Assembly: GCA_016199325.1 (NCBI GenBank)
Contig: JACQGW010000378.1
Span: 1-11,909 of the forward strand
DNA from: Chloroflexota bacterium
GTDB taxonomy: Bacteria; Chloroflexota; Dehalococcoidia; JACQGW01
Reading direction: 5' to 3'
DNA length: 11,909 nt
Part shown: one piece after another, positions 196 through 11,892 of the stretch
Numbering within the stretch: the stretch's first letter is position 1
How the letters are laid out: each line of letters opens with the position of its first letter
Made by a program: the position numbers and the translations under genes
The notes under the pieces: model-generated
The model's input: only the letters and a program-made list of their open reading frames with translations
The model's database searches: none
Told to the model about the DNA's origin: nothing

Positions 196-2403
196 CTAGG
201 CCGGTCCTGGAACGGCGCCGCGCCGGACCATCCGCTCGGCGACCACTTCGGCCAGGTGCTTGACGACGAGCGGCTTGCCGGCGGCGTCGATCCCTCCGCG
301 CAGGTGCATGATGCAGCCGGGGTTGTCCGCCACGACCATCCGAGCGCCGGTCGCCTCGGCGTTCGCCAGCTTTCGCCCCATGATCCGCTGGGCCACCTGC
401 GGGTGTTCTATCGAAAACGAGCCGCCGAAGCCGCAGCAAACGCTCGAATCGGCCATCTCGACGATCTCCAGCCCCAGCGCGTCGCTGAGGATCCGTCGGG
501 GCTCCGCCTGGAGCTTCAAACAGTTCGCCGACTGGCACGAGTCGTGGTAGGTCACCGGTTCGGTCGGCCCGTCGGCCAGCGCGCCGGCCGGCAACTGCGC
601 CACGTTCGTCAGGAAGCTGGTGAAGTCGATCACCCGCGCGGCCTGGCGCTCGGCCCGCTCAAGCCAGGCGGGGTCGTCGGCGAACAGGTGGGCGTAGTCC
701 TGCGTGATCGAGACCACGCAGCTATTCGAGCCGCTGACAACGTACTCGCCCGGCGACTGCTCCAGCGTCTCGACCAGCCGCCGGGCCAGTGATCGGGCGG
801 CCTCGCCGTCGCCCATGTTCAGGTAGGGCAGCCCGCAGCACTCCGGCGCGTCCAGAACGGCCACGCGCGCGCCGAGCCCCTCCAGAACGCCGACGACCGC
901 AACGCCCATCTCCGGATAGATCTGGTCGGTGATGCAGCCGGGGAAATACGAGACCGTCAGCCCCTCGGCAGCCGTGCCCGCCAGAACGGTGGGCTGCGGC
1001 GTCCGGTGCCGGTCGCGCGCCGCGAACGATCGCCGGGCGAACGCCGGCAGGCTACGCCAGCGTGTCATCTCCGACGCCCCGGGCATGGACCGGATGAGAC
1101 CGTCCTTGCCGGTGAACGGCACCTGGCCCAGCCGCGCCAGCCGCCCCACCAGGGAGCCGGGCTCGACGAGCGCCTTGACGGAGAGCTGCTTGGCCGCCGA
1201 CGGCGGCTTCCGTTCGATCACCTGCTGCCGGACGTCCAGGATCTGGCGGGGAATGGGAATGCCGACCGGGCAGACCGTCTCGCAGGCGTTGCAGCTCAAG
1301 CAGAGGCTCTGCGGCCCGGCCGCCGCCGCCAGGCCGTGGTGGAGCGCCGTCAGAACCAGCCCGATCGGCCCCGTATAGATGTGGCCGAAGGCGTGTCCGC
1401 CGACCTCGCGATAGGGCGGGCAGACGTTCGAGCAGGCGCCGCAGCGGATACAGTAGAGCGCCTCGACGAACGCCGGGTCGGCGGCCGCGGCCGTCCGGCC
1501 ATTGTCGAGCAGGACGATGTGTACCTCCTCCGGACCGTGGACGCCGGTGGTGAGCGACAGCTCGATGTCGCCGGTTCGGCTCGGTCCGGTGGTGAAGGAG
1601 ACGTAGGTCGACAGCTTCTGACCGGTCGCGTTCCGGGCCAGCACTTTGAGGATGGCCGTGGCATCGTCCAGGTCCGGCACGATCTTCTCGACGCCGAGGA
1701 GCGCTACGTGGAGACGCGGCAAGGTGCTGACGAGCCGTCCATTCCCCTCGTTGGTTACCAGGACGAGCGTGCCGGTGCTGGCGATGGCGATGTTGGCGCC
1801 GGTGATGCCCATGTCGGCCTCGACAAAGGCCCGCCGCAGCTCGCGCCGGGCCACCTTCACCAGCTTCTCCACCTCGGGCGGCTGGACCATGCCGGTGTGG
1901 CGGCTGAACAGCTCGGCCACCTCCTCGCGGGTCTTGTGGATGGCCGGAGCGATGAGGTGAGACGGGCGCTCGCCGGCCAGTTGGATGATCCACTCGCCGA
2001 GATCGGTCTCGACGACCCGCACGCCCAGCGCCTCGAGGGCGCGGTTCAGCTCGATCTCCTCGGTCGCCATCGATTTGCTCTTGACGGCGAGCTTGACGTC
2101 GTGCCGCTGGGCCAGGTCGCCGATGATGCGCCGGGCCTCCTCGGCCGTTCCGGCCCGGTGGACGACGGCGCCGACCTTCTCGGCCTCCGCCGTGAACTGC
2201 GCGACGAGCTCGGGCAGGCGGGCCAGTGCGGCGGCTTTGCGCCGATGGAGATCGCGCTGAATCTCGGCGAAGTCCTCGCCGGCAAATGCCGCCAGGCGCC
2301 GCTGCTGAAACGCGGAGAGCGAGCGGCCCAGCGCAACCCCGAGGTTCTTCGACGCCAGCGCCTGCGCCAGTCGCTCTTCAAAGGGGGCGATAGTATCGGT
2401 CAT
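196..2403 (-). CDS. Fused LutB-LutA type iron-sulfur oxidoreductase (LUD domain plus two CCG domains)
   Basis: A 735-residue protein joining LutB and LutA, subunits of the L-lactate (2-hydroxy acid) oxidation complex that normally yields pyruvate. Residues about 60-300 form the LUD domain. A ferredoxin-type double cluster follows, CxxCxxCxxxCP at C318-C328 and again at C368-C378. The LutA part has two CCG domains: C490 with C522-C523, and C623 with C656-C657 and C697. There is no signal peptide or membrane segment, so it should be cytoplasmic. The frame stays open to 2544, but I prefer ATG 2403: GAAGG lies 5 nt upstream, the putative promoter at 2507-2535 falls inside the longer version, and the extra N-terminus resembles no domain. 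Such fusions are known, for example in Desulfovibrio. LutC, the third subunit, is absent here. The LUD and CCG assignment is strong; the actual substrate (lactate, glycolate or another 2-hydroxy acid) is not shown. Confidence 0.92.
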   Translation of the reverse strand: MTDTIAPFEERLAQALASKNLGVALGRSLSAFQQRRLAAFAGEDFAEIQRDLHRRKAAALARLPELVAQFTAEAEKVGAVVHRAGTAEEARRIIGDLAQRHDVKLAVKSKSMATEEIELNRALEALGVRVVETDLGEWIIQLAGERPSHLIAPAIHKTREEVAELFSRHTGMVQPPEVEKLVKVARRELRRAFVEADMGITGANIAIASTGTLVLVTNEGNGRLVSTLPRLHVALLGVEKIVPDLDDATAILKVLARNATGQKLSTYVSFTTGPSRTGDIELSLTTGVHGPEEVHIVLLDNGRTAAAADPAFVEALYCIRCGACSNVCPPYREVGGHAFGHIYTGPIGLVLTALHHGLAAAAGPQSLCLSCNACETVCPVGIPIPRQILDVRQQVIERKPPSAAKQLSVKALVEPGSLVGRLARLGQVPFTGKDGLIRSMPGASEMTRWRSLPAFARRSFAARDRHRTPQPTVLAGTAAEGLTVSYFPGCITDQIYPEMGVAVVGVLEGLGARVAVLDAPECCGLPYLNMGDGEAARSLARRLVETLEQSPGEYVVSGSNSCVVSITQDYAHLFADDPAWLERAERQAARVIDFTSFLTNVAQLPAGALADGPTEPVTYHDSCQSANCLKLQAEPRRILSDALGLEIVEMADSSVCCGFGGSFSIEHPQVAQRIMGRKLANAEATGARMVVADNPGCIMHLRGGIDAAGKPLVVKHLAEVVAERMVRRGAVPGPA

Positions 2404-2506
2404 CTGCGCCTTCGGCGGTCGGCCATCGGCGGCCAGGGCATGACATCGAGTGCCACAGGGCACCAGCTCGGCTGATGGCTGGCCGCGGATCGTCGTTTGT
2501 CTCTGT

Positions 2507-2535
2507 ATGATAGTCGTGCCCTGGCGAAAACGCAA
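2507..2535 (-). promoter_or_regulatory. Putative sigma70-type promoter for the LutB-LutA gene
   Basis: On the minus strand, TTGCGT (complement of 2530-2535) is separated by exactly 17 nt from TATCAT (complement of 2507-2512). The -10 matches TATAAT at five of six positions; the -35 is weaker. Transcription would start near 2500, leaving a leader of about 95 nt before ATG 2403. It lies back to back with the rightward promoter. This is pattern matching only. Confidence 0.45.
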
Positions 2536-2552
2536 CGGGGTCACAGGCCCCG
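2536..2552. promoter_or_regulatory. Inverted repeat between the two divergent -35 elements
   Basis: CGGGG at 2536-2540 and CCCCG at 2548-2552 form a 5-bp inverted repeat around a 7-nt spacer, followed on the plus strand by six A's. It sits between the -35 hexamers of the two divergent promoters, where an activator or shared repressor could bind. It is short and GC-rich, so chance is a real alternative. It is not a terminator in either direction, because no T-run follows on the strand where it would be needed. Confidence 0.25.
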
Positions 2553-2752: not shown

Positions 2753-3664
2753 ATGGCTTCTCCCCTGCGTGGAGTCTATTCGGCCATGTGCACGCCGTTC
2801 ACCGCCGACGGCAGCGACATCGACGAGGCGGGCCTGCGAGATCTGGTCGACGGGACCATTGCGGCAGGCATTCATGGGCTCATCCCCTGCGGCAGCACGG
2901 GCGAGTTTGCCTCGATGAATACCGAAGAGCGCATGCGGGTAACCGAAATCGTCATGGACCAGACCCGCGAGCGTGTGCCGGTGGTCCCACATACGGGCTC
3001 GAGCAGTCTGCGCGAGGCTGTCAAGCTCTCCCAGCACGCAGAACGCCTGGGCGTCGCCGGGGTGATGGTGGTCTTTCCCTTCTACGAGCCGATCAGCCTG
3101 GACGAGGTCTACGACTACTACCGGGCCGTTTCCGATGCCGTCAGCATTCCCATCATGGTGTACAATTCGCCCTCCGGCACGGGGAAGAACCTCCCATCCA
3201 GCTTCATCGCTCGCCTCGGACGGGAGATCGCCAACGTGAAGTACTTGAAGGACTCCAGCGCGAGCATGCCGCAGATCCATCAGCTCGTGTACCGGCACGC
3301 CGCCGAGATCATCACCTTCAACGGGTGGGACACCATGTTCTATGCCGGCTTCGAGGTCGGCTGTCAGGGCGCCGTGTGTGGGCCCGCCAACGTGATGCCC
3401 AGGCAGTGCGCGCAGATCTTCGACCTCGTCCAGGCGGGCAAGCTGGACGAAGCGCGGGATCTGGACAAGAGGATCTGGCCCGTGATGCAGTTCTTCGAGG
3501 AAAACAGGTACAACGCGGCCATCAAGGCCGGGGCCAACCTCGTCGGCTTCCGCGTCGGCACGGTGCGGCCTCCGTTCCAGCCGTTGGCTCCGGAGAAAGT
3601 CGAGGAGCTGCGCCAACTGCTGGTCGCGGCGGAAATCATCCGGCCGGCCCTGAGCCGGGCGTGA
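2753..3664 (+). CDS. DapA/N-acetylneuraminate lyase family Schiff-base lyase
   Basis: A 303-residue TIM-barrel enzyme of the DHDPS/NAL superfamily, normal in length. Members form a Schiff base between lysine and pyruvate or another 2-oxo acid, to condense, cleave or dehydrate. Visible residues are GSTGE at 47-51, the FY pair at 110-111, Y137 in YNSPSGTG, and Schiff-base K166 in YLKDSS. The arginine that binds the semialdehyde carboxylate in true DapA (YNVPSRT) is replaced by G142, so lysine synthesis is unlikely. Catabolic relatives include sugar-acid aldolases or dehydratases and the hydroxyproline-pathway deaminase. Its place as first gene of an operon under a FadR-type operator, and the HcnA/HcnB-like sequences after it, favour a catabolic role. 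The exact substrate cannot be read from sequence. The start is secured by AAGGAG at 2739-2744. Confidence 0.93.
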   Translation: MASPLRGVYSAMCTPFTADGSDIDEAGLRDLVDGTIAAGIHGLIPCGSTGEFASMNTEERMRVTEIVMDQTRERVPVVPHTGSSSLREAVKLSQHAERLGVAGVMVVFPFYEPISLDEVYDYYRAVSDAVSIPIMVYNSPSGTGKNLPSSFIARLGREIANVKYLKDSSASMPQIHQLVYRHAAEIITFNGWDTMFYAGFEVGCQGAVCGPANVMPRQCAQIFDLVQAGKLDEARDLDKRIWPVMQFFEENRYNAAIKAGANLVGFRVGTVRPPFQPLAPEKVEELRQLLVAAEIIRPALSRA

Positions 3665-3785
3665 AGTCGAAGTCGAGGGAATGGGTTTCGTGCGGAGCTG
3701 TATGACCGCCGTTCGCCCCGGAATGACGGTCAACACGGTGGTGCCGCAGGAGGTCAGGGAGCACGATGAGCTTACGGCAAACTGA
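3654..3785 (+). pseudogene. C-terminal remnant of a HcnA-like [2Fe-2S] subunit gene
   Basis: Between the lyase and flavoprotein genes, a frame open from 3654 to a TGA at 3783-3785 encodes a tail like that of HcnA-type ferredoxin subunits. It includes EVEVEG, then VRSCMTAVRPGMTV, matching the family's RxCxTxVRPGM ending, in which the cysteine is the last cluster ligand. The body with the other three cysteines is missing: a stop at 3651-3653 and the lyase coding sequence lie there. The frame overlaps the start of the following HcnB-like gene by 20 bp, as expected of a former coupled hcnA-hcnB pair. The likely history is a deletion or recombination that joined the lyase gene to the hcnA tail. 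A 34-residue product could still start at ATG 3681 and help coupled translation of the next gene. The assignment is from remembered family motifs, not an alignment. Confidence 0.65.
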
Positions 3786-5217
3786 GGTCGCCGTTATCGG
3801 GGCGGGGCCTGCCGGTATCGCCGCTGCCCTGGCCGCCGCCGGGGCGGGCGCACGCGTAACGGTGGTAGACGAGTATCCCACAGCGGGGGGGCAAATCTAC
3901 CGGCAGTTGCCCACGGCCTTCCGTGTCAAGCCGGGAGCGGCCCGTGGCCGGGACCAGACCAGAGCCCAGGCGCTCCTGAGCAGGCTCCGCAGCTCATCGG
4001 TTGAGGTGTGCACGGGCACGCTGGTCTGGGGCTTCCACGATCACCACACGCTGGCCCTCTACCGCGAAGGTGAGGGAACGGAGGCGCTGCGCGCCCAGGT
4101 GGTCGTCGTCGCCACGGGCGCGTACGATCGCCCCGTCGCCTTCCCAGGCTGGACCCTGCCGGGCGTCTGGACGGCGGGCGGCGCGCAGACGATGGTGAAG
4201 GCCCAGCAGGTCCTTCCGGGCCGGCGGGTGCTGCTGGCGGGGGCTGGGCCCTTCTTGCTGCCGGTGGCCAGGTCGCTGGTGGAGGCGGGAGCCCAGGTGG
4301 TGGCGCTTGCGGAAGCCACTGCGACGAGCGAATGGGCGGCGCGGGCCCTCGCGATGCTCCACCACTGGGGGCGCGTGGTCGAGTTCATCGAGTACGAGCG
4401 CGCGCTGCTGCGGGCGCGCGTGCCTCATTACTACGGCCACGTGATCGTGCGGGCCGAGGGCGATGGCGACGTACGGCGGGCCACCATCGCCGCGGTCGAC
4501 CGGAGCTGGCGGCCCCGAGCGGGGACGGAGAAAACCTTCGACGTGGATCTCGTATGCACCGGCTACGGCTTTCTGACTTCGATGGAGATCCCCCGCTTGC
4601 TGGGGTGCAGCATGCGCTTCGACTCGCTTCAGGGGCAGTTCCTCCCGGAGCACGACGAGGAGATGGAGACGAGCGTCCCGGGCGTCTTCGTGGCCGGCGA
4701 GACCGCAGGCGTCGGCGGCGCCGAGCTGGCCCTCGCGCAGGGGGAGATCGCCGGGTACGCCGCCGCCCGGCGGCTCGGCAAGGAGCTGGATCCACGCAGC
4801 AGGAGCGCGCTATCCGCGGCCAGGGCCCGGCGGCAACACCTCCAGGGGTTTGCCGACCTGCTCAACCGCATGTTCACCATGCGTCCCGGCATCTATGGAC
4901 TCGCCCATGCCGATACGCCGCTCTGTCGTTGCGAAGAGGTTACCGTGGGAGAGGTGCGCCAGGCCATCGCGCATGGCGCGCGCAGCATGAATGCGCTGAA
5001 GTCCTGGCTGCGGATCGGCATGGGGCCGTGCCAGGGACGGGTCTGTGGCTACCTCGCGGCTCACCTGCTGGCAGCGGAGGTCGGCGTTCCGCCGACGGAG
5101 TCGCGGCCGATGACGCCCCGCCCGCCCATCAAACCGATTCCGCTCGGGGCCATGGCCGGGCTGCTCGAAGCCCTGCACGATGAGGGAGACACGAACCGCA
5201 GCCGTGAGGCTACTTGA
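3766..5217 (+). CDS. HcnB/OoxA-like FAD/NAD(P) oxidoreductase with BFD-type [2Fe-2S] domain
   Basis: A 483-residue flavoprotein related to the alpha subunits of hydrogen cyanide synthase (HcnB), opine oxidase (OoxA) and D-hydroxyproline dehydrogenase. Seen: the FAD-binding GAGPAG at 12-17, ATGAYDRP at 116-123, a second Rossmann glycine motif LAGAGP at 157-162, and the late FAD motif GVFVAGE at 306-312. The C-terminal BFD-like cluster domain has C387, C389, C422 and C427. In known complexes this subunit passes electrons to or from a DadA-like catalytic flavoprotein (HcnC/OoxB) and a small ferredoxin (HcnA). Neither is intact here; only the HcnA tail remains just upstream. It may act alone, or with partners encoded elsewhere. 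AGGAGGT at 3748-3754 precedes ATG 3766, and no other in-frame start is near. It is cytoplasmic, with no signal peptide. Confidence 0.88.
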   Translation: MSLRQTEVAVIGAGPAGIAAALAAAGAGARVTVVDEYPTAGGQIYRQLPTAFRVKPGAARGRDQTRAQALLSRLRSSSVEVCTGTLVWGFHDHHTLALYREGEGTEALRAQVVVVATGAYDRPVAFPGWTLPGVWTAGGAQTMVKAQQVLPGRRVLLAGAGPFLLPVARSLVEAGAQVVALAEATATSEWAARALAMLHHWGRVVEFIEYERALLRARVPHYYGHVIVRAEGDGDVRRATIAAVDRSWRPRAGTEKTFDVDLVCTGYGFLTSMEIPRLLGCSMRFDSLQGQFLPEHDEEMETSVPGVFVAGETAGVGGAELALAQGEIAGYAAARRLGKELDPRSRSALSAARARRQHLQGFADLLNRMFTMRPGIYGLAHADTPLCRCEEVTVGEVRQAIAHGARSMNALKSWLRIGMGPCQGRVCGYLAAHLLAAEVGVPPTESRPMTPRPPIKPIPLGAMAGLLEALHDEGDTNRSREAT

Positions 5218-5244: not shown

Positions 5245-5982
5245 ATGCCCGTACTGACGCAGCGGGTGGGGCAGAACATGGCGGGGCACCCCATAGGCAT
5301 TCTGTTGTTGGAGACGCACGCCGTCCTTCTGCCCGGGAACGTGGCGAACGCCACGACCTTCAATTTCCCGGTCCTCTATAAGGTCGTTCCCGGCGTCGAG
5401 GCCGACCGCCTCATCGTGCGCGCCGACGAATCGTTGCTGGAGCCGCTCATCGAGGCCGGCAGGGAGCTCGTGCGCGAGGGCGTACGGGCCATCAGCTCCG
5501 GCTGCGGGTACTTCGGCTACTTCCAGCGCCAGATGGCGGAGGCCCTGGAGGTCCCCGTTTTCATGTCCAGTCTCCTCCAGGTGCCCCTCATCGCCCGCTC
5601 GCTGCTGCCGAAGCAGTCCGTGGGCATCATCTGCGCCAACGGCAAGTACATGCGCGAGCGCACGCTGCGCTCCTGCGGCGTCGACGAGTCGGTACCGCTG
5701 GTGATCGCCGGCCTGGAGGACCAGCCCACGTTCTTCACCAACTTCCTGCTGAACCAGGGCAAGGCTGACATCGAGGTGATGGCGCAGGAGGTCGTAGGTG
5801 TCGCCGGGCGGATGGTCGAGCAGCACCCTGAGGTCGGCGCAATTCTTCTGGAATGCAGCGACCTGCCGCCGTACGCGGCCGAGATCCAGGCGGTGACGGG
5901 TCGGCCAGTGTTCGACTTCGTCACGATGATCAACTGGATGTACAGCGCCGTGGTGCGCCGGCCGTACACGGGCTACATGTAA
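5245..5982 (+). CDS. Aspartate/glutamate racemase family protein
   Basis: A 245-residue protein with the two-cysteine layout of the Asp/Glu/hydantoin racemase superfamily: C87 in SSGCGYFG and C204 in LLECSDLPPY. Members use the pair as acid and base for racemisation; relatives include hydantoin racemase, arylmalonate decarboxylase and maleate isomerase, so racemase activity is not certain. Both cysteines are present, which argues against the decarboxylase type that keeps one. The gene begins 27 nt after the flavoprotein gene; GGAGG at 5226-5230 and AAGG at 5234-5237 lie upstream of ATG 5245. A racemase beside an amino-acid-oxidase-like flavoprotein suggests that a chiral amino or hydroxy acid is processed, but this is inference. 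No signal peptide. Confidence 0.85.
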   Translation: MPVLTQRVGQNMAGHPIGILLLETHAVLLPGNVANATTFNFPVLYKVVPGVEADRLIVRADESLLEPLIEAGRELVREGVRAISSGCGYFGYFQRQMAEALEVPVFMSSLLQVPLIARSLLPKQSVGIICANGKYMRERTLRSCGVDESVPLVIAGLEDQPTFFTNFLLNQGKADIEVMAQEVVGVAGRMVEQHPEVGAILLECSDLPPYAAEIQAVTGRPVFDFVTMINWMYSAVVRRPYTGYM

Positions 5983-6013: not shown

Positions 6014-6745
6014 ATGGTTCCCAACTTAATCGTCATGCTCACCTACAACGATCAGACGGTGCCCGACGCACGGGAGGTATTCGAGAAGGCGCAGGGCGCA
6101 CGGGCCCAGCACTGGGGCTTCAAGGACGTGGGGCTGCCGGTTGAGCAGATGCGCCGTCTCGTCGACCGCATCAAGGCGGCGGACAAGACCACGTACCTGG
6201 AGGTCGTGCGCTACAGCGAGGAGGAATGCCTGGAGTCGGCCGACATCGCCCTCAGGTGTGGCTTCGACTACCTCATGGGCACGGTTTACCACGACTCTGT
6301 ACGCCGGCTCCTTGCCGGCCAGCGAATAAAGTACCTTCCCTTCTGTGGGAAGGTCAGCGGCAGCCCCAGCATTCTGGAGGGCTCCGTCGACGAGATCGTC
6401 GCCGATGGCCGGCGCATCGCCCTGGAAAGGGTAGACGGCTTCGACCTGCTGGCCTACCGCCACCGGACCGACCCCGAGGGGCTGGCGCGGCGCTTCGTGC
6501 GGGAGGTAGACCGCCCCGTGGTCATCGCCGGCAGCATCGGGAGCTTCGAGCGGCTCGACCGCGTGAAGGAGATCGGGCCCTGGGGATTCACCATCGGCAG
6601 CGCCTTCTTCGACCGCAAGTTCGGCAAAGAGTTGTCCTTCGCCGCGCAGATCGACCGGGTCATCGCCCATATGGAAGGGGACGCATCCTTGTCTGCAAGC
6701 ACGGGCGCCCCGGGAGGCACGGGGCTATTCGTCGAAAGGGGATAG
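6014..6745 (+). CDS. TIM-barrel protein of unknown function
   Basis: 243 residues. I cannot assign a function. The repeating strand-helix pattern and the end of the barrel (VVIAGSIGSF at 169-178, then GFTIGSAFF at 191-199) resemble the two phosphate-binding strands of HisA/TrpF/NanE-like (beta/alpha)8 barrels, which suggests a phosphorylated ligand. Charged residues at strand ends that look like active-site candidates are K37-D38 (FKDVG), E63 (YLEVV), K113 (CGKV) and R149 (AYRH). The last 22 residues, from G222, are small and low in complexity and probably form a disordered tail beyond the barrel. The preceding GTAGAGAG-ATG context is the same as that of the upstream racemase-family gene. The cupin gene starts 4 nt after this stop, so the two are probably translationally coupled. 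A phosphosugar isomerase, epimerase or aldolase fed by the downstream kinase is a reasonable guess. Confidence 0.8.
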   Translation: MVPNLIVMLTYNDQTVPDAREVFEKAQGARAQHWGFKDVGLPVEQMRRLVDRIKAADKTTYLEVVRYSEEECLESADIALRCGFDYLMGTVYHDSVRRLLAGQRIKYLPFCGKVSGSPSILEGSVDEIVADGRRIALERVDGFDLLAYRHRTDPEGLARRFVREVDRPVVIAGSIGSFERLDRVKEIGPWGFTIGSAFFDRKFGKELSFAAQIDRVIAHMEGDASLSASTGAPGGTGLFVERG

Positions 6746-6749
6746 ACCG

Positions 6750-7085
6750 ATGGAGATCAGGGTCATCCGCGAATCCGAGACGCGCCTCTTCCTGGAGGGG
6801 CCAGAGGTCTGCCGGGAGTACTTCCGGACGGGCAAGATCACCTTTGGATCCTCCACCCTCCTGCCCGGCCAGACGGGGGCCATCGACCCGGGACACGCCT
6901 CATCGCACGAGGTGTTCTTCGTCAGCCGCGGCCATGTGCTCTTGCGCAACCCGGAGGACGGGGCCTGCTACGAGCTGAGGGAGGGAGACGCCGTGATCAT
7001 CCCTGAGGGCAGGCCGCACGAGCTGACGAACATCGGCATGGAGAAGGCGATCATCACCTGGAGCGCGGCTCCCAGCCCGGCGTAA
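6750..7085 (+). CDS. Small single-domain cupin
   Basis: A 111-residue cupin. Motif 1 reads DPGHASSHEVFFVSRG (46-61) and motif 2 PEGRPHELTN (85-94). H49, E54 and H90 fit the usual metal-ligand positions, but the first histidine of the HxH pair is proline (P47); H53 might substitute. Such small cupins serve as sugar-phosphate isomerases, lyases, oxygenases or simple ligand binders, so the reaction is open. The gene starts 4 nt after the TIM-barrel gene, with AAGGGG just upstream inside that gene, and ends 15 nt before the kinase start, so it is embedded in the operon. No targeting signal is present. Confidence 0.85.
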   Translation: MEIRVIRESETRLFLEGPEVCREYFRTGKITFGSSTLLPGQTGAIDPGHASSHEVFFVSRGHVLLRNPEDGACYELREGDAVIIPEGRPHELTNIGMEKAIITWSAAPSPA

Positions 7086-7100
7086 GGGAAGGAAGTGGAG

Positions 7101-8621
7101 ATGGAGATGGACAACATCCTTGCCCTGGACCTGGGCACGACCGCCGTCAAGGTCATCCTCTTCCGGCAGGACGGGACGGTTCTCGCCAGGTCCACCCAGG
7201 AGTACGCCTTGCTCACGCCCACCACCCTCGCGGTGGAGCTGCCGGCCGAGACCTACTGGACGGCCTTCAAGAAGGGTGTGGCCGAGGTATTGGCGGCCTC
7301 AGCGGTGCCCCCTGCCAGCATCAAAGCCCTCGGCATCTCTGCCCAGGGGGAGACGCTGATCCCGCTCGGCGCCGACGGCCAGCCCCTGACGAACGCCATC
7401 GTCTGGCTGGACAACCGCGCCCAGGCAGAAGCGGAGATGCTGGCGGCGGAGTTCGACAACGAGGCCAGCTATCGCGTGACCGGCCAGGTCAGCATCGTCC
7501 CCACGTGGCCGGCCGCCAAGATCTTCTGGCTCAAGCGCCATCAGCCGAAGCTGTTCCGGCAGACAGCCAGGTTCTGCCTGATCGAGGACTACTTCATCTA
7601 CCGGATGACGGGCTCCCTCGTCTGCGAGGGCTCGCTGGTCTGTTCCACCGTCTACTGGGACATCGTAAAGAAGCGCTGGTGGCCGGAGATGCTCTCCTAC
7701 CTCGGCGTATCGACAGAGCGGCTCCCGGAGCTGCGGGAGTCGGGTGAGGTGGTCGGCCCGTTGCAGCCCGCGGTCGCCCGGGAGCTCGGCCTCTCCCCAG
7801 AGACGCTGGTTTGCACCGGCGCACTCGACCAGGCCTGCGGGGCCATTGGCGTAGGCAACATCGGGCCGGGAGTGATCTCGGAGAACATCGGCGCCGCGCT
7901 CGCCATCTGCGCTACGGTGGACCGGCCGACCTTCGATCCCAGGCGGCGGATGCCCTGCCACTACCACGCCTATCCCGACGGCTACATGATGCACACCTTC
8001 ACCACCGGCGGTATGGTGCTCAAGTGGTATCGCGACGGCTTCTGTGGGCCGGAGGTGGAGGCGGCTGCCCTGGCCGGCATGGATAGCTACGACGTGCTAA
8101 GCCGTGAGGCCGCCCAGGTGCCGCCGGGGTCCGACGGGCTCGTGATGCTGCCGCATCTGCAAGGGGCCATGGCCCCCGAGGACAACCCCAGGGCCAGGGG
8201 GGTCTTCTTCGGCTTCACTCTCCACCATACGAGGCCCTACTTCATCCGGGCCATCATGGAGTCGATCGCTTGCGCCATCAAGCGCAACATCGACGTCCTG
8301 GAGGATGTCGGCATTCCCGTGCGCGAGATCCGATCGCTGGGCGGCGGGTCGCGCAGCCAACTGTGGAATCAGATCAAGAGCGACCTCACGCAAAGGCCCC
8401 TGTACACGATGCAGAACGAGGAGGCGGGCTGTCTCGGCGCCGCGATGCTGGCAGGGCGAGCGGTCGGCATCTATCCCGACCTTCGGTCGGCCGTCGATAA
8501 GATGGTGGCGCTCAAGCAGCGGTACGAGCCGCAGGCCGAGAATGCCCCGGCTTACGCCGCCACCTACGAACGCTACGGCCGACTCTACGACTCGCTTCTC
8601 GATCTGTTCGCGAGCGGGTGA
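7101..8621 (+). CDS. FGGY-family carbohydrate kinase (XylB-like)
   Basis: A 506-residue kinase of the xylulokinase/glycerol kinase family, which phosphorylates a sugar or polyol with ATP. Seen: DLGTT (10-14) for phosphate binding, the catalytic aspartate D243 in TGALDQACG, TTGGMVLKWY (301-310), and the GGGSRSQLW loop (414-422). Overall length fits XylB. At the substrate loop, where xylulokinases have QMHG, this protein reads AQGET (81-85), closer in form to the NQRET of glycerol kinase; the substrate is therefore probably not xylulose. Start choice: the frame allows GTG 7095, ATG 7101 or ATG 7107. GGAAGG at 7087-7092, 8 nt before 7101, favours 7101, though GGAG at 7097-7100 could serve 7107. 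It presumably makes the phosphorylated intermediate used by other operon enzymes. Confidence 0.92.
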   Translation: MEMDNILALDLGTTAVKVILFRQDGTVLARSTQEYALLTPTTLAVELPAETYWTAFKKGVAEVLAASAVPPASIKALGISAQGETLIPLGADGQPLTNAIVWLDNRAQAEAEMLAAEFDNEASYRVTGQVSIVPTWPAAKIFWLKRHQPKLFRQTARFCLIEDYFIYRMTGSLVCEGSLVCSTVYWDIVKKRWWPEMLSYLGVSTERLPELRESGEVVGPLQPAVARELGLSPETLVCTGALDQACGAIGVGNIGPGVISENIGAALAICATVDRPTFDPRRRMPCHYHAYPDGYMMHTFTTGGMVLKWYRDGFCGPEVEAAALAGMDSYDVLSREAAQVPPGSDGLVMLPHLQGAMAPEDNPRARGVFFGFTLHHTRPYFIRAIMESIACAIKRNIDVLEDVGIPVREIRSLGGGSRSQLWNQIKSDLTQRPLYTMQNEEAGCLGAAMLAGRAVGIYPDLRSAVDKMVALKQRYEPQAENAPAYAATYERYGRLYDSLLDLFASG

Positions 8622-8674: not shown

Positions 8675-10603
8675 ATGAGCAAGATACCCAAGAAGGTGAT
8701 GGTCCTCGGCATCGACTCGGCGATTGCCGCGCGGGTCTACCAGGCGGCGAAGGAGGGAAAGCTGCCTACCCTCCGGAGACTGATGGACGCGGGGGTGTAC
8801 GCGACCAACTGCTTCGTCCCCAACCCGACGGTCACGCCGCCCAACTGGACGAGCATCACCACCGGCGCCTGGCCGGGCACCCACGGCATCACCGGTTTTT
8901 CGGTGCAGTTCGAGGGCGAACCGCTGTACCCGGCCCGCCAGGGCCTCGACGCCCGCTACGTGACGGCCGAGCGCGTCTGGACGGCCGCCCGTCGCGCCGG
9001 CAAGAAGGCCATCGTCGTCAACTACCCCACCACCTGGCCGCCCACGCCCGGGGTTGACTACCAGGTCGCCGGGTACGGCCTCGCGGTCAACGACTACCGC
9101 ATCGGCCTGTTCTACCCCGACGGCAAGGTGACGAACCTCTGCCACGACATCCTGCTGGCCTCGGAAGCCTATCCGCACGCCACCGAGGTGGTCTTCGAGA
9201 AAGCTCACGGCTGGGACGGGCTCACGCCCTCGGCCAGGGCCCTGGAGGCGACGGTTCAGCCGGAGATCCGCGAGCCGATGCACCGCCTGAAGCCGTTCAC
9301 CTGGCACCTGCTGCTGGACTCCTCGACCGGAGGCGCCCTGGATACCGTGATCGTGGCGCGAGAGAAGAGCGCAGCGGGCGTCTTCGCCAGGCTGAAGGTG
9401 GGGGAGTGGTCTCCCCACATCTACGATACGTTCGAGACGGAGAAGGGGCCGCGCAAGGGCGTGTTTCGCTGCAAGCTGCTGGAGCTCTCGCCCGATGGCC
9501 TCCAATTCAGGCTGTACGTGCCGTGCATCTGCGGCCTCCAGGGGTGGGGCTATCCGGAGGCGATTGAAGACGAGATCCGGTCCGAGGACGGGCTGCCGAT
9601 GGGGCGCGCTGGCTGGGAGCCCTATACCTGGGACTGGATCGACAGCCAGACGCTGATCGAAACCACGGAGCTGTACTGCACCTGGCTGGCCGATACCTCC
9701 CTGCATCTGCTGCGCAACAAGCCCTGGGACATCTTCTTCATACACGAGCACTCCATCGACTGGGCCTACCACGTCCTGTCCGACAACATCGACCCCCTGA
9801 CGGCCGTCGATCCTTCGCTGGTCGAGACGATGCAAGCCCTGGAAGTGGCCCTGTATCAGGTCATCGACCGGTGCTTTGGGCGGATTCTCGAAGTGGCGGA
9901 CGAGGACACCGTCGTCGTGATCGTCTCGGACCACGGCTGCAAGTCGCTCGGCATCCCGTTCCCGGTCAACGACGCGCTGGAGAAGGCGGGCCTTCTTGTG
10001 TACCTCCCATCGACAGACGAAGACGAACCGAGGGAAGTCGATTGGTCGAAGACCAGAGCCATCTGGCAGCGCTCGGGCGGCTACATCTGCATCAACGTGA
10101 AAGGGCGCGATCCGCAGGGCATCGTCGAGCCTGAAGATTACGAACGGACCGTGGACGAGGTCATCAAGGTCCTGCACCAGGCGGTGGACCCCGAGACCGG
10201 CCTGCGCCCCATCGCCATCGCCCTCCGCAAGGAAGATGCGCCGGTGCTGGGGCTCTGGGGCGACCGGGTCGGGGACATCTTCTACAACGTCGACCCGCGC
10301 TTCGAAGAGGAGCACGCCTACCATCTGTCGACCGCCCACTACGGCGTCGGCGACCTGAAAGGCATGTTCATCATGGCGGGGCCCGGCGTCAAGCAAGGGG
10401 AGGTCCTCGACCGCAACGTCCATCTGACCGATATCGTGCCCACCATCTGCCATCTGGCCCGCCTCCCGGTGCCCACGGAATGCGAAGGGGCCATTCTCTA
10501 CCACGCCCTCGAAGATCCCGGGGCGCCGCTTCGGGAGATGCAGTCCCTCAGGTCCAGCGTGAACCGCTACCGGAGGGTGCTGAAGCGGCCGGTGAAGCTA
10601 TAA
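8675..10603 (+). CDS. AlkP-superfamily phosphohydrolase/phosphodiesterase, catalytic set intact
   Basis: A 642-residue enzyme of the AlkP superfamily, in the soluble phosphodiesterase/phosphohydrolase-phosphomutase branch. All seven expected two-metal-site residues are present: D14 (GIDS), T54 nucleophile (TPPNW), D362 and H366 (DWAYH), D419-H420 (SDHG) and H555 (TAHYG). About 270 residues (81-350) between the N-terminal core and D362 form a large cap or insert, probably setting substrate choice. With no signal peptide or membrane segment it should be cytoplasmic, unlike secreted alkaline phosphatases. The open frame reaches GTG 8618, overlapping the kinase stop, but ATG 8675 has AAAGGA at 8661-8666 with 8 nt spacing and begins directly before the core strand. 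The family hydrolyses phosphate mono- or diesters; the substrate here may be a phosphorylated operon metabolite. Confidence 0.9.
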   Translation: MSKIPKKVMVLGIDSAIAARVYQAAKEGKLPTLRRLMDAGVYATNCFVPNPTVTPPNWTSITTGAWPGTHGITGFSVQFEGEPLYPARQGLDARYVTAERVWTAARRAGKKAIVVNYPTTWPPTPGVDYQVAGYGLAVNDYRIGLFYPDGKVTNLCHDILLASEAYPHATEVVFEKAHGWDGLTPSARALEATVQPEIREPMHRLKPFTWHLLLDSSTGGALDTVIVAREKSAAGVFARLKVGEWSPHIYDTFETEKGPRKGVFRCKLLELSPDGLQFRLYVPCICGLQGWGYPEAIEDEIRSEDGLPMGRAGWEPYTWDWIDSQTLIETTELYCTWLADTSLHLLRNKPWDIFFIHEHSIDWAYHVLSDNIDPLTAVDPSLVETMQALEVALYQVIDRCFGRILEVADEDTVVVIVSDHGCKSLGIPFPVNDALEKAGLLVYLPSTDEDEPREVDWSKTRAIWQRSGGYICINVKGRDPQGIVEPEDYERTVDEVIKVLHQAVDPETGLRPIAIALRKEDAPVLGLWGDRVGDIFYNVDPRFEEEHAYHLSTAHYGVGDLKGMFIMAGPGVKQGEVLDRNVHLTDIVPTICHLARLPVPTECEGAILYHALEDPGAPLREMQSLRSSVNRYRRVLKRPVKL

Positions 10604-10608
10604 AGGAG
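10603..10608 (+). promoter_or_regulatory. Ribosome binding site that decides the start of the last gene
   Basis: AAGGAG overlaps the stop codon of the previous gene. It lies 9 nt before ATG 10618 but only 3 nt before ATG 10612, so 10618 is preferred. Confidence 0.65.
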
Positions 10609-10617
10609 AACATGGGG

Positions 10618-11892
10618 ATGAACGCCAACGTGCCTCGCAAGGTCCTGGTGGTGGGCATCGACTCCACCGTCCCTGGTCGCGTGTACCGCTGGGCCCAGGA
10701 AGGCCAACTGCCGGCGCTGGGCCAGTTGATGCAGAACGGCGTGCATTGCAGCAGCTACTACGTGTATCTCCCTACCGTGGCTGCCGCCAACTGGGCCAGC
10801 CTCTGCACGGGCACCAGGCCCGGGATCCACGGCGTGACCGACCAGGTGATCCACGTACCCGGCAGCCCTCTGGACGTCGTGTATGCGCCGCCCAGCCTGG
10901 ACGAGCTGCCGGTAGAGACACTGGCGCAGGCCGCAGCGCGGCAGGGCAAGAAGAGCCTCGTGCTGGAGCTCCCCGCCGGTCTGCCTGAGGGTGCCGACGC
11001 CGCCAAGCTGGTGAAGTCCCTGCAATGGCAGTTGGGCCAACTGGTGGAGGACGCCAGGCAGCAGCTCTCGGCGCCGTGGAGCTTCTGCTTCCTGCATCTG
11101 GACCTGCTGGAGAAGGCGCAACAGGCGCTGTCGGCGGAGGGGTACGCGCAGGCCGAGCTCGCGCTGCACCAGGCCATAGACGGCGCCCTGGGCGAGCTGG
11201 TGCAGTCGGCGGGCGAGGGGTCTCTCGTGGTCGTGGCCTCTACCCACGGGCTGAAGCCTCCGGGCAGGCCCTTCCAGGTGAGCGAGCTCCTGGAGAGGGC
11301 TGGACTGCTGGCCTACCTGCCGGGGCCGGATCGCAAGGTGGACTGGGCTCGCACGAAGGTGGCGCCCGTGGGCACGGCGCACCTGTTCGTGAACCTTCAG
11401 GGACGCGATCCCCAGGGGATCGTGGCGCCGGAGGAGTACGCGCAGGTGGTGGACCGAACCATCGACGTGCTGCTCCAGTGCGTGGATCAGGAGAGCGGGC
11501 TGGGTCCCGTCCGGGTGGCGCTGAAGCGGGAGGACGCCCGGGTCCTGGGCGTGTGGGGAGACCGAGCCGGCGACGTGGTGTACGTCCTGGATCCCCGGTT
11601 CGGCGGCCAGTATGGCCCCTTCCTCACAACCGCGCGTGCCGGCGATGGGGATCTCAAGGGGATGCTCGTCATGGCCGGCCCCGGGCTGAAGAAAGGGGAG
11701 GTGGTGAGACGACCGCTCTGGCCGGCGGACCTGGTGCCCACCCTCTGCTACGTGGCGGAGATCGAGGAGCCGCGGGAGTGTGAAGGGGCTGTGATCTACC
11801 AGGCGTTAGAAGAGCCCGGGGGGCTGGGGATGCAGATCTTCAACTTGAGGTCGGAGCTCCAGCGCCTGAAGCGGATTGTCGACAAACGCTAG
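10618..11892 (+). CDS. Shortened AlkP-superfamily paralogue lacking most catalytic residues (probable pseudoenzyme)
   Basis: A 424-residue paralogue of the preceding protein. The first 80 residues and residues from about 154 onward align with it, including an ungapped stretch from GRDPQGIV (263-270) to DPRF (325-328) and GDLKGM (344-349). The catalytic set is largely gone: nucleophile Thr becomes A55, Asp becomes E165, His becomes Q169, Asp of SDHG becomes T209 (STHG), and the last His becomes R340. Only D15 and H210 remain. The large insert is cut from about 270 to about 73 residues. The frame is intact, with a good ribosome site and normal GC, so it looks maintained rather than decaying. 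It may bind the same ligand, pair with the active copy, or have a new role. It starts 14 nt after its paralogue's stop, so the two are very likely co-translated. No signal peptide. Confidence 0.88.
   Translation: MNANVPRKVLVVGIDSTVPGRVYRWAQEGQLPALGQLMQNGVHCSSYYVYLPTVAAANWASLCTGTRPGIHGVTDQVIHVPGSPLDVVYAPPSLDELPVETLAQAAARQGKKSLVLELPAGLPEGADAAKLVKSLQWQLGQLVEDARQQLSAPWSFCFLHLDLLEKAQQALSAEGYAQAELALHQAIDGALGELVQSAGEGSLVVVASTHGLKPPGRPFQVSELLERAGLLAYLPGPDRKVDWARTKVAPVGTAHLFVNLQGRDPQGIVAPEEYAQVVDRTIDVLLQCVDQESGLGPVRVALKREDARVLGVWGDRAGDVVYVLDPRFGGQYGPFLTTARAGDGDLKGMLVMAGPGLKKGEVVRRPLWPADLVPTLCYVAEIEEPRECEGAVIYQALEEPGGLGMQIFNLRSELQRLKRIVDKR

What the first reader, a model, noticed from the sequence alone, without database searches (positions are those of the whole stretch)
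10618..11892. Catalytically dead AlkP-superfamily paralogue encoded right after its intact sister
Aligned by eye, the 642-residue protein keeps D14, T54, D362, H366, D419, H420 and H555. The 424-residue one has D15, A55, E165, Q169, T209, H210 and R340 in their places. Loss of the nucleophile plus metal ligands of both sites rules out the standard mechanism, yet the frame is open, the fold landmarks and C-terminal half are well kept, and it is tightly coupled to the active copy. The cap region is also about 200 residues shorter. This looks like a maintained pseudoenzyme: a regulatory subunit, a heterodimer partner or a ligand sensor.
Basis: partly seen in the sequence, partly recalled or inferred. 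Interest (0 to 1): 0.75.

Follow-up and report, generated by a model that had tools for sequence, protein, structure and literature searches.

The report
Dead phosphatase beside its working sister
A bacterial gene next to a zinc phosphodiesterase-like enzyme gene encodes a shortened relative that has lost the catalytic metal site yet has close and distant kin that are all dead in the same way, so it is probably a non-catalytic helper; its actual job is untested.

Summary
The finding is real. Window 8675-10603 encodes an intact AlkP-superfamily protein (642 aa, NPP-like core). Window 10618-11892, 14 bp downstream with its own AGGAG, encodes a 424-aa relative that lacks the ~200-residue cap. Three capped protein searches gave six further short relatives. 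All seven form one clade (100/99, with cap and catalytic columns removed). All seven lack the same four residues of the intact proteins: H359 (D/E instead), H366 (Q/R), D419 (T/A/S) and H547 (Y/C/F). Most other conserved core positions are kept, and the fold is predicted at pLDDT 94.9.

Two corrections. H555 is not the third metal histidine: column 555 is His in 2 of 191 intact relatives, column 547 in 189. The nucleophile loss (T54A) is private to the window's copy; six of seven keep Thr. The dead clade is old and is not a copy of its present neighbour.

A second, apparently independent 'mini' dead AlkP (~250 aa) precedes an OsmC-like gene and an intact AlkP in the same order in two genomes. 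P0050 is a third dead form.

Best reading: a maintained pseudoenzyme, most likely a non-catalytic partner of an intact AlkP. The partner role is inferred. The gene neighbours of the other six dead relatives could not be seen.

The parts
8675..10603 (+). Intact AlkP-superfamily protein P0001, 642 aa, PF01663, NPP-like core plus ~200-residue cap
9041..9640 (+). Cap region of the intact protein (about residues 123-322), absent from the short copy
   Evidence: Boundaries from the two BLASTP segments; alignment
10313..10315 (+). Codon of H547 in the intact protein, probable third metal histidine
   Evidence: His in 189 of 191 intact relatives; position; assignment as ligand is inferred
10604..10608 (+). 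AGGAG, likely ribosome-binding site of the short gene, directly after the stop of the intact gene
   Evidence: what the sequence shows
10618..11892 (+). Short, capless, catalytically dead AlkP relative P0002, 424 aa
   Evidence: (pLDDT 94.9, pTM 0.91)
10780..10782 (+). A55 at the nucleophile column (Thr in the intact protein and in 6 of 7 dead relatives)
11101..11103 (+). D162 at column 359 (His in 188 of 191 intact relatives; D or E in 7 of 7 dead)
11110..11124 (+). E165 and Q169 at columns 362 and 366 (D and H in intact relatives)
11242..11247 (+). T209-H210 at columns 419-420 (D-H in intact relatives)
11611..11613 (+). Y332 at column 547 (His in intact relatives); Y, C or F in 7 of 7 dead
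11821..11883 (+). Predicted C-terminal helix (residues 402-422), shared with the intact protein; candidate interaction tail
   Evidence: DSSP of the model; tails listed; interaction role inferred

Best explanation
P0002 is a true pseudoenzyme of the AlkP/NPP superfamily, from an old clade that lost the cap and four active-site residues (shown by sequence). It is translated next to an intact relative (shown). It most likely works as a non-catalytic partner: it binds an intact AlkP, in the window P0001, through the retained core surface and C-terminal helical tail, and controls its activity, stability or substrate access, in the manner of the trypanosome prozymes (inferred). Steps shown: loss of site-1 ligands H366 and H547 and of site-2 ligand D419; kept fold; monophyly; adjacency in the window. 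Steps inferred: no catalysis, partner binding, regulation.
For: Seven proteins lack the same four residues and form one clade at 100/99 with the cap and catalytic columns left out. Pairwise identity falls to 44%, yet all seven frames are full length. In a neutral substitution-only simulation of P0002, 1 of 200 runs stayed open at 66% identity and 0 of 200 at 45%. 37 of 50 conserved core columns are kept in at least 6 of 7 dead proteins, and the losses centre on the active site. The C-terminal part is the best kept between P0002 and P0003: 78% and 74% identity in regions 548-615 and 616-642, against 62-69% elsewhere. The gene is 14 bp from the intact one. A second dead form (mini, ~250 aa) keeps the N-terminal part and the same C-terminal module, and precedes an OsmC-like gene and an intact AlkP in two genomes at 51% protein identity. 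Precedent: the dead paralogue prozyme activates AdoMetDC by heterodimerisation (PMC5201418, abstract and outline); a dead paralogue raises deoxyhypusine synthase activity 3000-fold (PMC3663545, start of abstract in the listing).
Against: No complex was modelled: the structure tool takes one chain. Contigs of the other six dead relatives could not be read, so pairing is seen once for this clade. The dead clade is not sister to P0001: P0001 pairs with P0007 (100/100), and the dead clade groups weakly (89/95) with other Chloroflexota paralogues, so long co-evolution with P0001 itself is not shown. The window's operon has other genes that P0002 could serve. Single C-terminal tails end in Cys in 6 of 7 dead but not in P0002 or P0001. 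The P0002-P0001 tail similarity may simply be common descent.
Confidence: 0.5

Rival explanations
1. Stand-alone ligand sensor: P0002 binds a phosphate-bearing metabolite in the emptied pocket and signals to other proteins, with no direct role for the intact neighbour.
For: Dead-specific conserved residues near the pocket suggest a re-tuned site: Cys at column 354 in 7 of 7 dead, D/E at 359, while D14, H420 (7 of 7) and T54 (6 of 7) are kept. The gene lies in a run of eight same-strand genes with gaps of 4 to 101 bp, including an FGGY kinase, a cupin and a DHDPS-family gene.
Against: No output domain; 424 residues are one AlkP core. Sits directly behind an intact AlkP.
Confidence: 0.2
2. Re-purposed enzyme: the altered pocket catalyses another reaction, with one metal or none.
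For: D14, T54 (6 of 7), D362 (5 of 7) and H420 remain, and new conserved residues appear (C354, D/E359). Other AlkP members use changed metal sites (recalled: sulfatases use one Ca2+ and formylglycine).
Against: The window's copy has also lost the Thr and has E for D362. Site 1 keeps one of three ligand columns in most members. No sequence or structural precedent for this residue set was found.
Confidence: 0.15
3. Decaying gene: the dead copy is drifting toward a pseudogene, at least in this genome.
For: The window's copy has gone furthest in the clade: it alone lost T54, and it shares D362E with P0003. It also lacks the clade's C-terminal Cys.
Against: Open frame, gene-like G+C by codon position, high-confidence fold, 66% identity to P0003 over 99% of its length, and the neutral simulation.
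Confidence: 0.05
4. Alignment artefact: the metal ligands are supplied by shifted residues and the protein is an ordinary active AlkP.
For: Profile alignments to solved structures place the third histidine loop (columns 547-555) ambiguously.
Against: D362-x3-H366 and D419-H420 align without gaps in all seven, and no other conserved His or Asp appears nearby in the clade. Two lost ligands (H366, D419) do not depend on the ambiguous loop.
Confidence: 0.03

Closest known systems
Nucleotide pyrophosphatases/phosphodiesterases (NPP/ENPP, PF01663) of the AlkP superfamily
   Different: P0002 keeps D15 and H210 only of the seven. P0001's inserted cap and its H420-to-H547 gap of 127 (109 in NPP3) are family features.
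Predicted AlkP superfamily phosphohydrolase/phosphomutase proteins (name given by JGI to many relatives)
   Same: P0001 and its ~640-aa relatives belong here by sequence.
   Different: The dead clade is capless, 424-453 aa, and lacks four near-invariant residues. No function is known to me for the family.
Prozyme-type dead paralogues (trypanosome AdoMetDC prozyme, dead deoxyhypusine synthase)
   Same: An inactive paralogue of an enzyme kept beside an active one; working principle proposed here.
   Different: Unrelated enzymes. In those cases binding and activation were measured (PMC5201418 abstract; PMC3663545 listing); here neither is tested.
Pseudophosphatases (STYX, MTMR family)
   Same: Phosphatase folds without catalytic residues that regulate active relatives or sequester ligands (PMC10211241, passages).
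   Different: The examples seen in those passages are Cys-based or lipid phosphatases of eukaryotes, not metal-dependent AlkP proteins.

Membership tests
AlkP superfamily, NPP-like (P0001) | AlkP fold | tested here: met
AlkP superfamily, NPP-like (P0001) | Two-metal ligand set D, T, D, H, D, H, H | tested here: met
   D14 T54 D362 H366 D419 H420 H547 by alignment; third His by conservation, not by coordinates
AlkP superfamily, NPP-like (P0002) | AlkP fold | tested here: met
AlkP superfamily, active enzyme (P0002) | Nucleophile and two-metal ligand set | tested here: not met
   A55, E165, Q169, T209, Y332 in place of T, D, H, D, H
Pseudoenzyme | Loss of conserved catalytic motifs with kept fold | tested here: met
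Pseudoenzyme | Maintained by selection | tested here: inconclusive
   Open frames, conservation pattern and neutral simulation favour it; dN/dS not measurable without relatives' DNA
Pseudoenzyme | No catalytic activity | not testable with these tools
   Needs assays
Prozyme-like activator | Encoded or expressed with its active relative | tested here: inconclusive
   Met in the window (14 bp); unseen for the other six clade members; met for the mini form in two genomes with one gene between
Prozyme-like activator | Hetero-oligomer with the active relative that changes its activity | not testable with these tools
   Only single chains can be modelled; needs co-purification and kinetics

The most novel reading that the evidence does not exclude
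In this much-duplicated AlkP family, dead capless relatives arose several times (the 424-453 aa clade, the ~250 aa mini form beside OsmC, and P0050) and became obligate regulatory subunits of intact AlkP enzymes, giving hetero-oligomeric AlkP enzymes controlled by a prozyme-like subunit.
Probability: 0.33. Interest if true: 0.72.

Novelty: new variant of a known kind. Interest (0 to 1): 0.5.

Why it matters
Pseudoenzymes are best known from eukaryotic signalling. A bacterial, metal-dependent phosphodiesterase fold that has repeatedly shed its metals and cap while staying near intact relatives would be a simple, purifiable system for asking how dead paralogues control live ones. It would also warn annotators: the short proteins carry PF01663 above its cut-off (P0002) and the intact ones are called AlkP hydrolases, though the short ones cannot use that mechanism. 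My searches of the held open-access papers for such a case (listings seen) showed no description of it; subscription journals are mostly not held.

Tried and rejected
Recent tandem duplication of P0001: rejected, because P0001 pairs with P0007 (74% identity, 100/100) and the dead clade lies apart.

H555 as metal ligand: rejected on conservation (2 of 191). I could not settle the third histidine by coordinates, because models come without them; profile alignments put the NPP and PafA histidine at about columns 552-554, where the family has no conserved His, so H547 is an inference.

Search for short dead relatives with their neighbourhoods: genome contigs with P0002 alone gave none; with alignment A1 it gave 31 loci and no short dead member. 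Viral contigs gave none. Whole genomes: class of G001, 1 of 29 with a match at 1e-60; Chloroflexota sample, 17 of 400 at 1e-40; class of G133, 5 of 41 at 1e-70; 9 of 11 named-locus genomes at 1e-60; class of G403, 1 of 396 at 1e-90; phylum of G402, 2 of 84 at 1e-100. These sets overlap. The 30 loci held from the best matches (L062-L091) carry the intact letters wherever the columns are present; three are truncated at the N-terminus. Weaker or unlisted matches were not opened (for example G007:C109 with a 421-aa frame), and in the two largest searches only four candidates per genome were scored.

Mini form in other genomes: 2 of 400. Its independence from the seven-member clade rests on its different missing segment; no tree was built with it. 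Its G001 copy hits no Pfam family, and its frame there runs on past the homologous part; only the G001 copy lacks the nucleophile Thr and D14, while the G029 copy keeps both.

dN/dS: not run, no DNA of P0003-like relatives.

Full report
What is there. The window carries eight same-strand genes with gaps of 101, 27, 31, 4, 12, 53 and 14 bp: DHDPS family (2753-3664), FAD/BFD oxidoreductase (3766-5217), Asp/Glu racemase family (5245-5982), a protein with no Pfam hit (6014-6745), cupin (6750-7085), FGGY kinase (7098-8621), intact AlkP (8675-10603) and the short AlkP (10618-11892). The short gene starts 14 bp after the stop of the intact one, behind AGGAG. The window ends 17 bases after its stop, so what follows is unseen. 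No whole genome is held for the window.

Catalytic residues. In NPP3 the two zinc ions are held by D168, T206, D326, H330, D373, H374 and H483 (PMC6052110, passages). P0001 matches this order and spacing with D14, T54, D362, H366, D419, H420 and H547. Among 191 intact relatives column 547 is His in 189 and column 555 in 2. P0002 has D15, A55, E165, Q169, T209, H210 and Y332. A further near-invariant residue, H359, is D162 in P0002.

A dead clade. Three protein searches, each scoring about 8,000 capped candidates, listed 74, 120 of 124 and 120 of 159 proteins. Among them six short relatives align over 99% of P0002: P0003 (66% identity), P0004 (47), P0076 (45), P0077 (45), P0078 (44) and P0142 (43). 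At columns 14, 54, 359, 362, 366, 419, 420 and 547 the seven read: P0002 DADEQTHY, P0003 DTDEQTHY, P0004 DTDDQAHY, P0076 DTDDRAHY, P0077 DTEDRAHY, P0078 DTDDRSHC, P0142 DTDDRSHF. Of 211 aligned rows (nine duplicates dropped first), 179 read DTHDHDHH; the rest include fragments, distant outgroups, the seven dead, P0050 (H366D, H420R) and P0160 (H366D). A tree of 56 rows picked from the 211, with cap and catalytic columns left out, joins the seven at 100/99 and in all of 200 bootstrap trees counted, apart from P0001+P0007 (100/100). The next grouping, with P0080/L033 and P0005/L001, is weak (89/95). An earlier tree of 78 rows joined the first six at SH-aLRT 100.

Maintenance. Pairwise identity in the clade runs from 44% to 74%. 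In 200 neutral substitution-only runs from P0002, frames gained 5.7 stops on average at 66% identity (1 run open) and 8.7 at 45% (none open). Of 50 conserved core columns, 37 are kept in at least 6 of 7, 8 are mixed and 5 are lost: P122, H359, H366, D419, H547. So the loss is selective and shared. The window's copy has gone furthest, having also lost the nucleophile. dN/dS could not be measured.

Independent parallels. Genome G001 (Chloroflexi bacterium FK_Sedi_B_Bin.34) gave 58 matches to P0002; by my count of that table about 26 are separate frames of 640-750 aa. One contig carries a mini relative of about 270 homologous residues, lacking the stretch with D362 to H547, followed by an OsmC-like gene and an intact AlkP of 680 aa. 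G029, from the same class, has an orthologue of 252 aa (51% identity), then an OsmC gene (PF02566), then an intact AlkP of 663 aa (its active-site letters were read by eye in the alignment). The mini form was found in 2 of 400 Chloroflexota genomes. Its independence from the seven-member clade is inferred from the different missing part. P0050 falls with the intact P0029 and P0031, so its loss is separate.

How it may work. With both site-1 histidines and D419 gone, the standard two-metal mechanism is excluded by sequence. What is kept is the fold, the surface-determining core, and the C-terminal module with its helix. That module is also what the mini form keeps. I therefore favour a protein-protein role with an intact AlkP, at about 0.5, over a stand-alone sensor (0.2), a re-purposed enzyme (0.15), a decaying gene (0.05) or an alignment artefact (0.03). 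Dead activators of live paralogues are known in trypanosomes (PMC5201418; PMC3663545).

Limits. Pairing with an intact AlkP is seen once for the seven-member clade. None of the best genome matches that I opened was a short dead member, but the largest searches scored only four candidates per genome. The third metal histidine is assigned by conservation. Substrate and pathway are unknown.

Novelty. Pseudoenzymes and pseudophosphatases are a known kind; a dead, capless AlkP/NPP-fold clade encoded with an intact relative in bacteria was not found in my paper searches (listings). I call it a new variant of a known kind.

Noticed in passing
L092 8777-9601 (-) and L118 5911-6669 (+): A ~250-residue 'mini' AlkP relative without most active-site columns, followed by an OsmC-like gene and an intact AlkP in two genomes of one class.
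   Followed up: partly
Genome G001: One 4.4-Mb Chloroflexi genome has about 26 (my count) full-length members of this AlkP family; those with long flanks (L001, L002, L011, L012, L116) lie near what look like ABC-importer genes (by eye, not family-searched).
   Followed up: partly
C-termini of family members: A helix ending in ...RP-M-C with a final Cys: 6 of 7 dead relatives, the G029 mini form, and 29 of 191 intact relatives end in Cys; the window's pair does not. Purpose unknown.
   Followed up: no
P0050 (495 aa): Another short AlkP with H366D and H420R, grouping with intact P0029 and P0031; a separate loss.
   Followed up: partly
dead clade, columns 354 and 359: Cys at column 354 in 7 of 7 dead proteins (Phe, Leu or Tyr in most intact ones) and D/E at 359: conserved new residues near the old active site.
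   Followed up: no
window 196-2544 (-): Divergent gene for a 782-aa protein with LUD, 4Fe-4S and two cysteine-rich (CCG) stretches, like a fused lactate-utilisation subunit.
   Followed up: no
window 6014-6745 (+): 243-aa protein with no Pfam hit and only a weak partial HisA-type NCBIfam match, between a racemase-family gene and a cupin.
   Followed up: no
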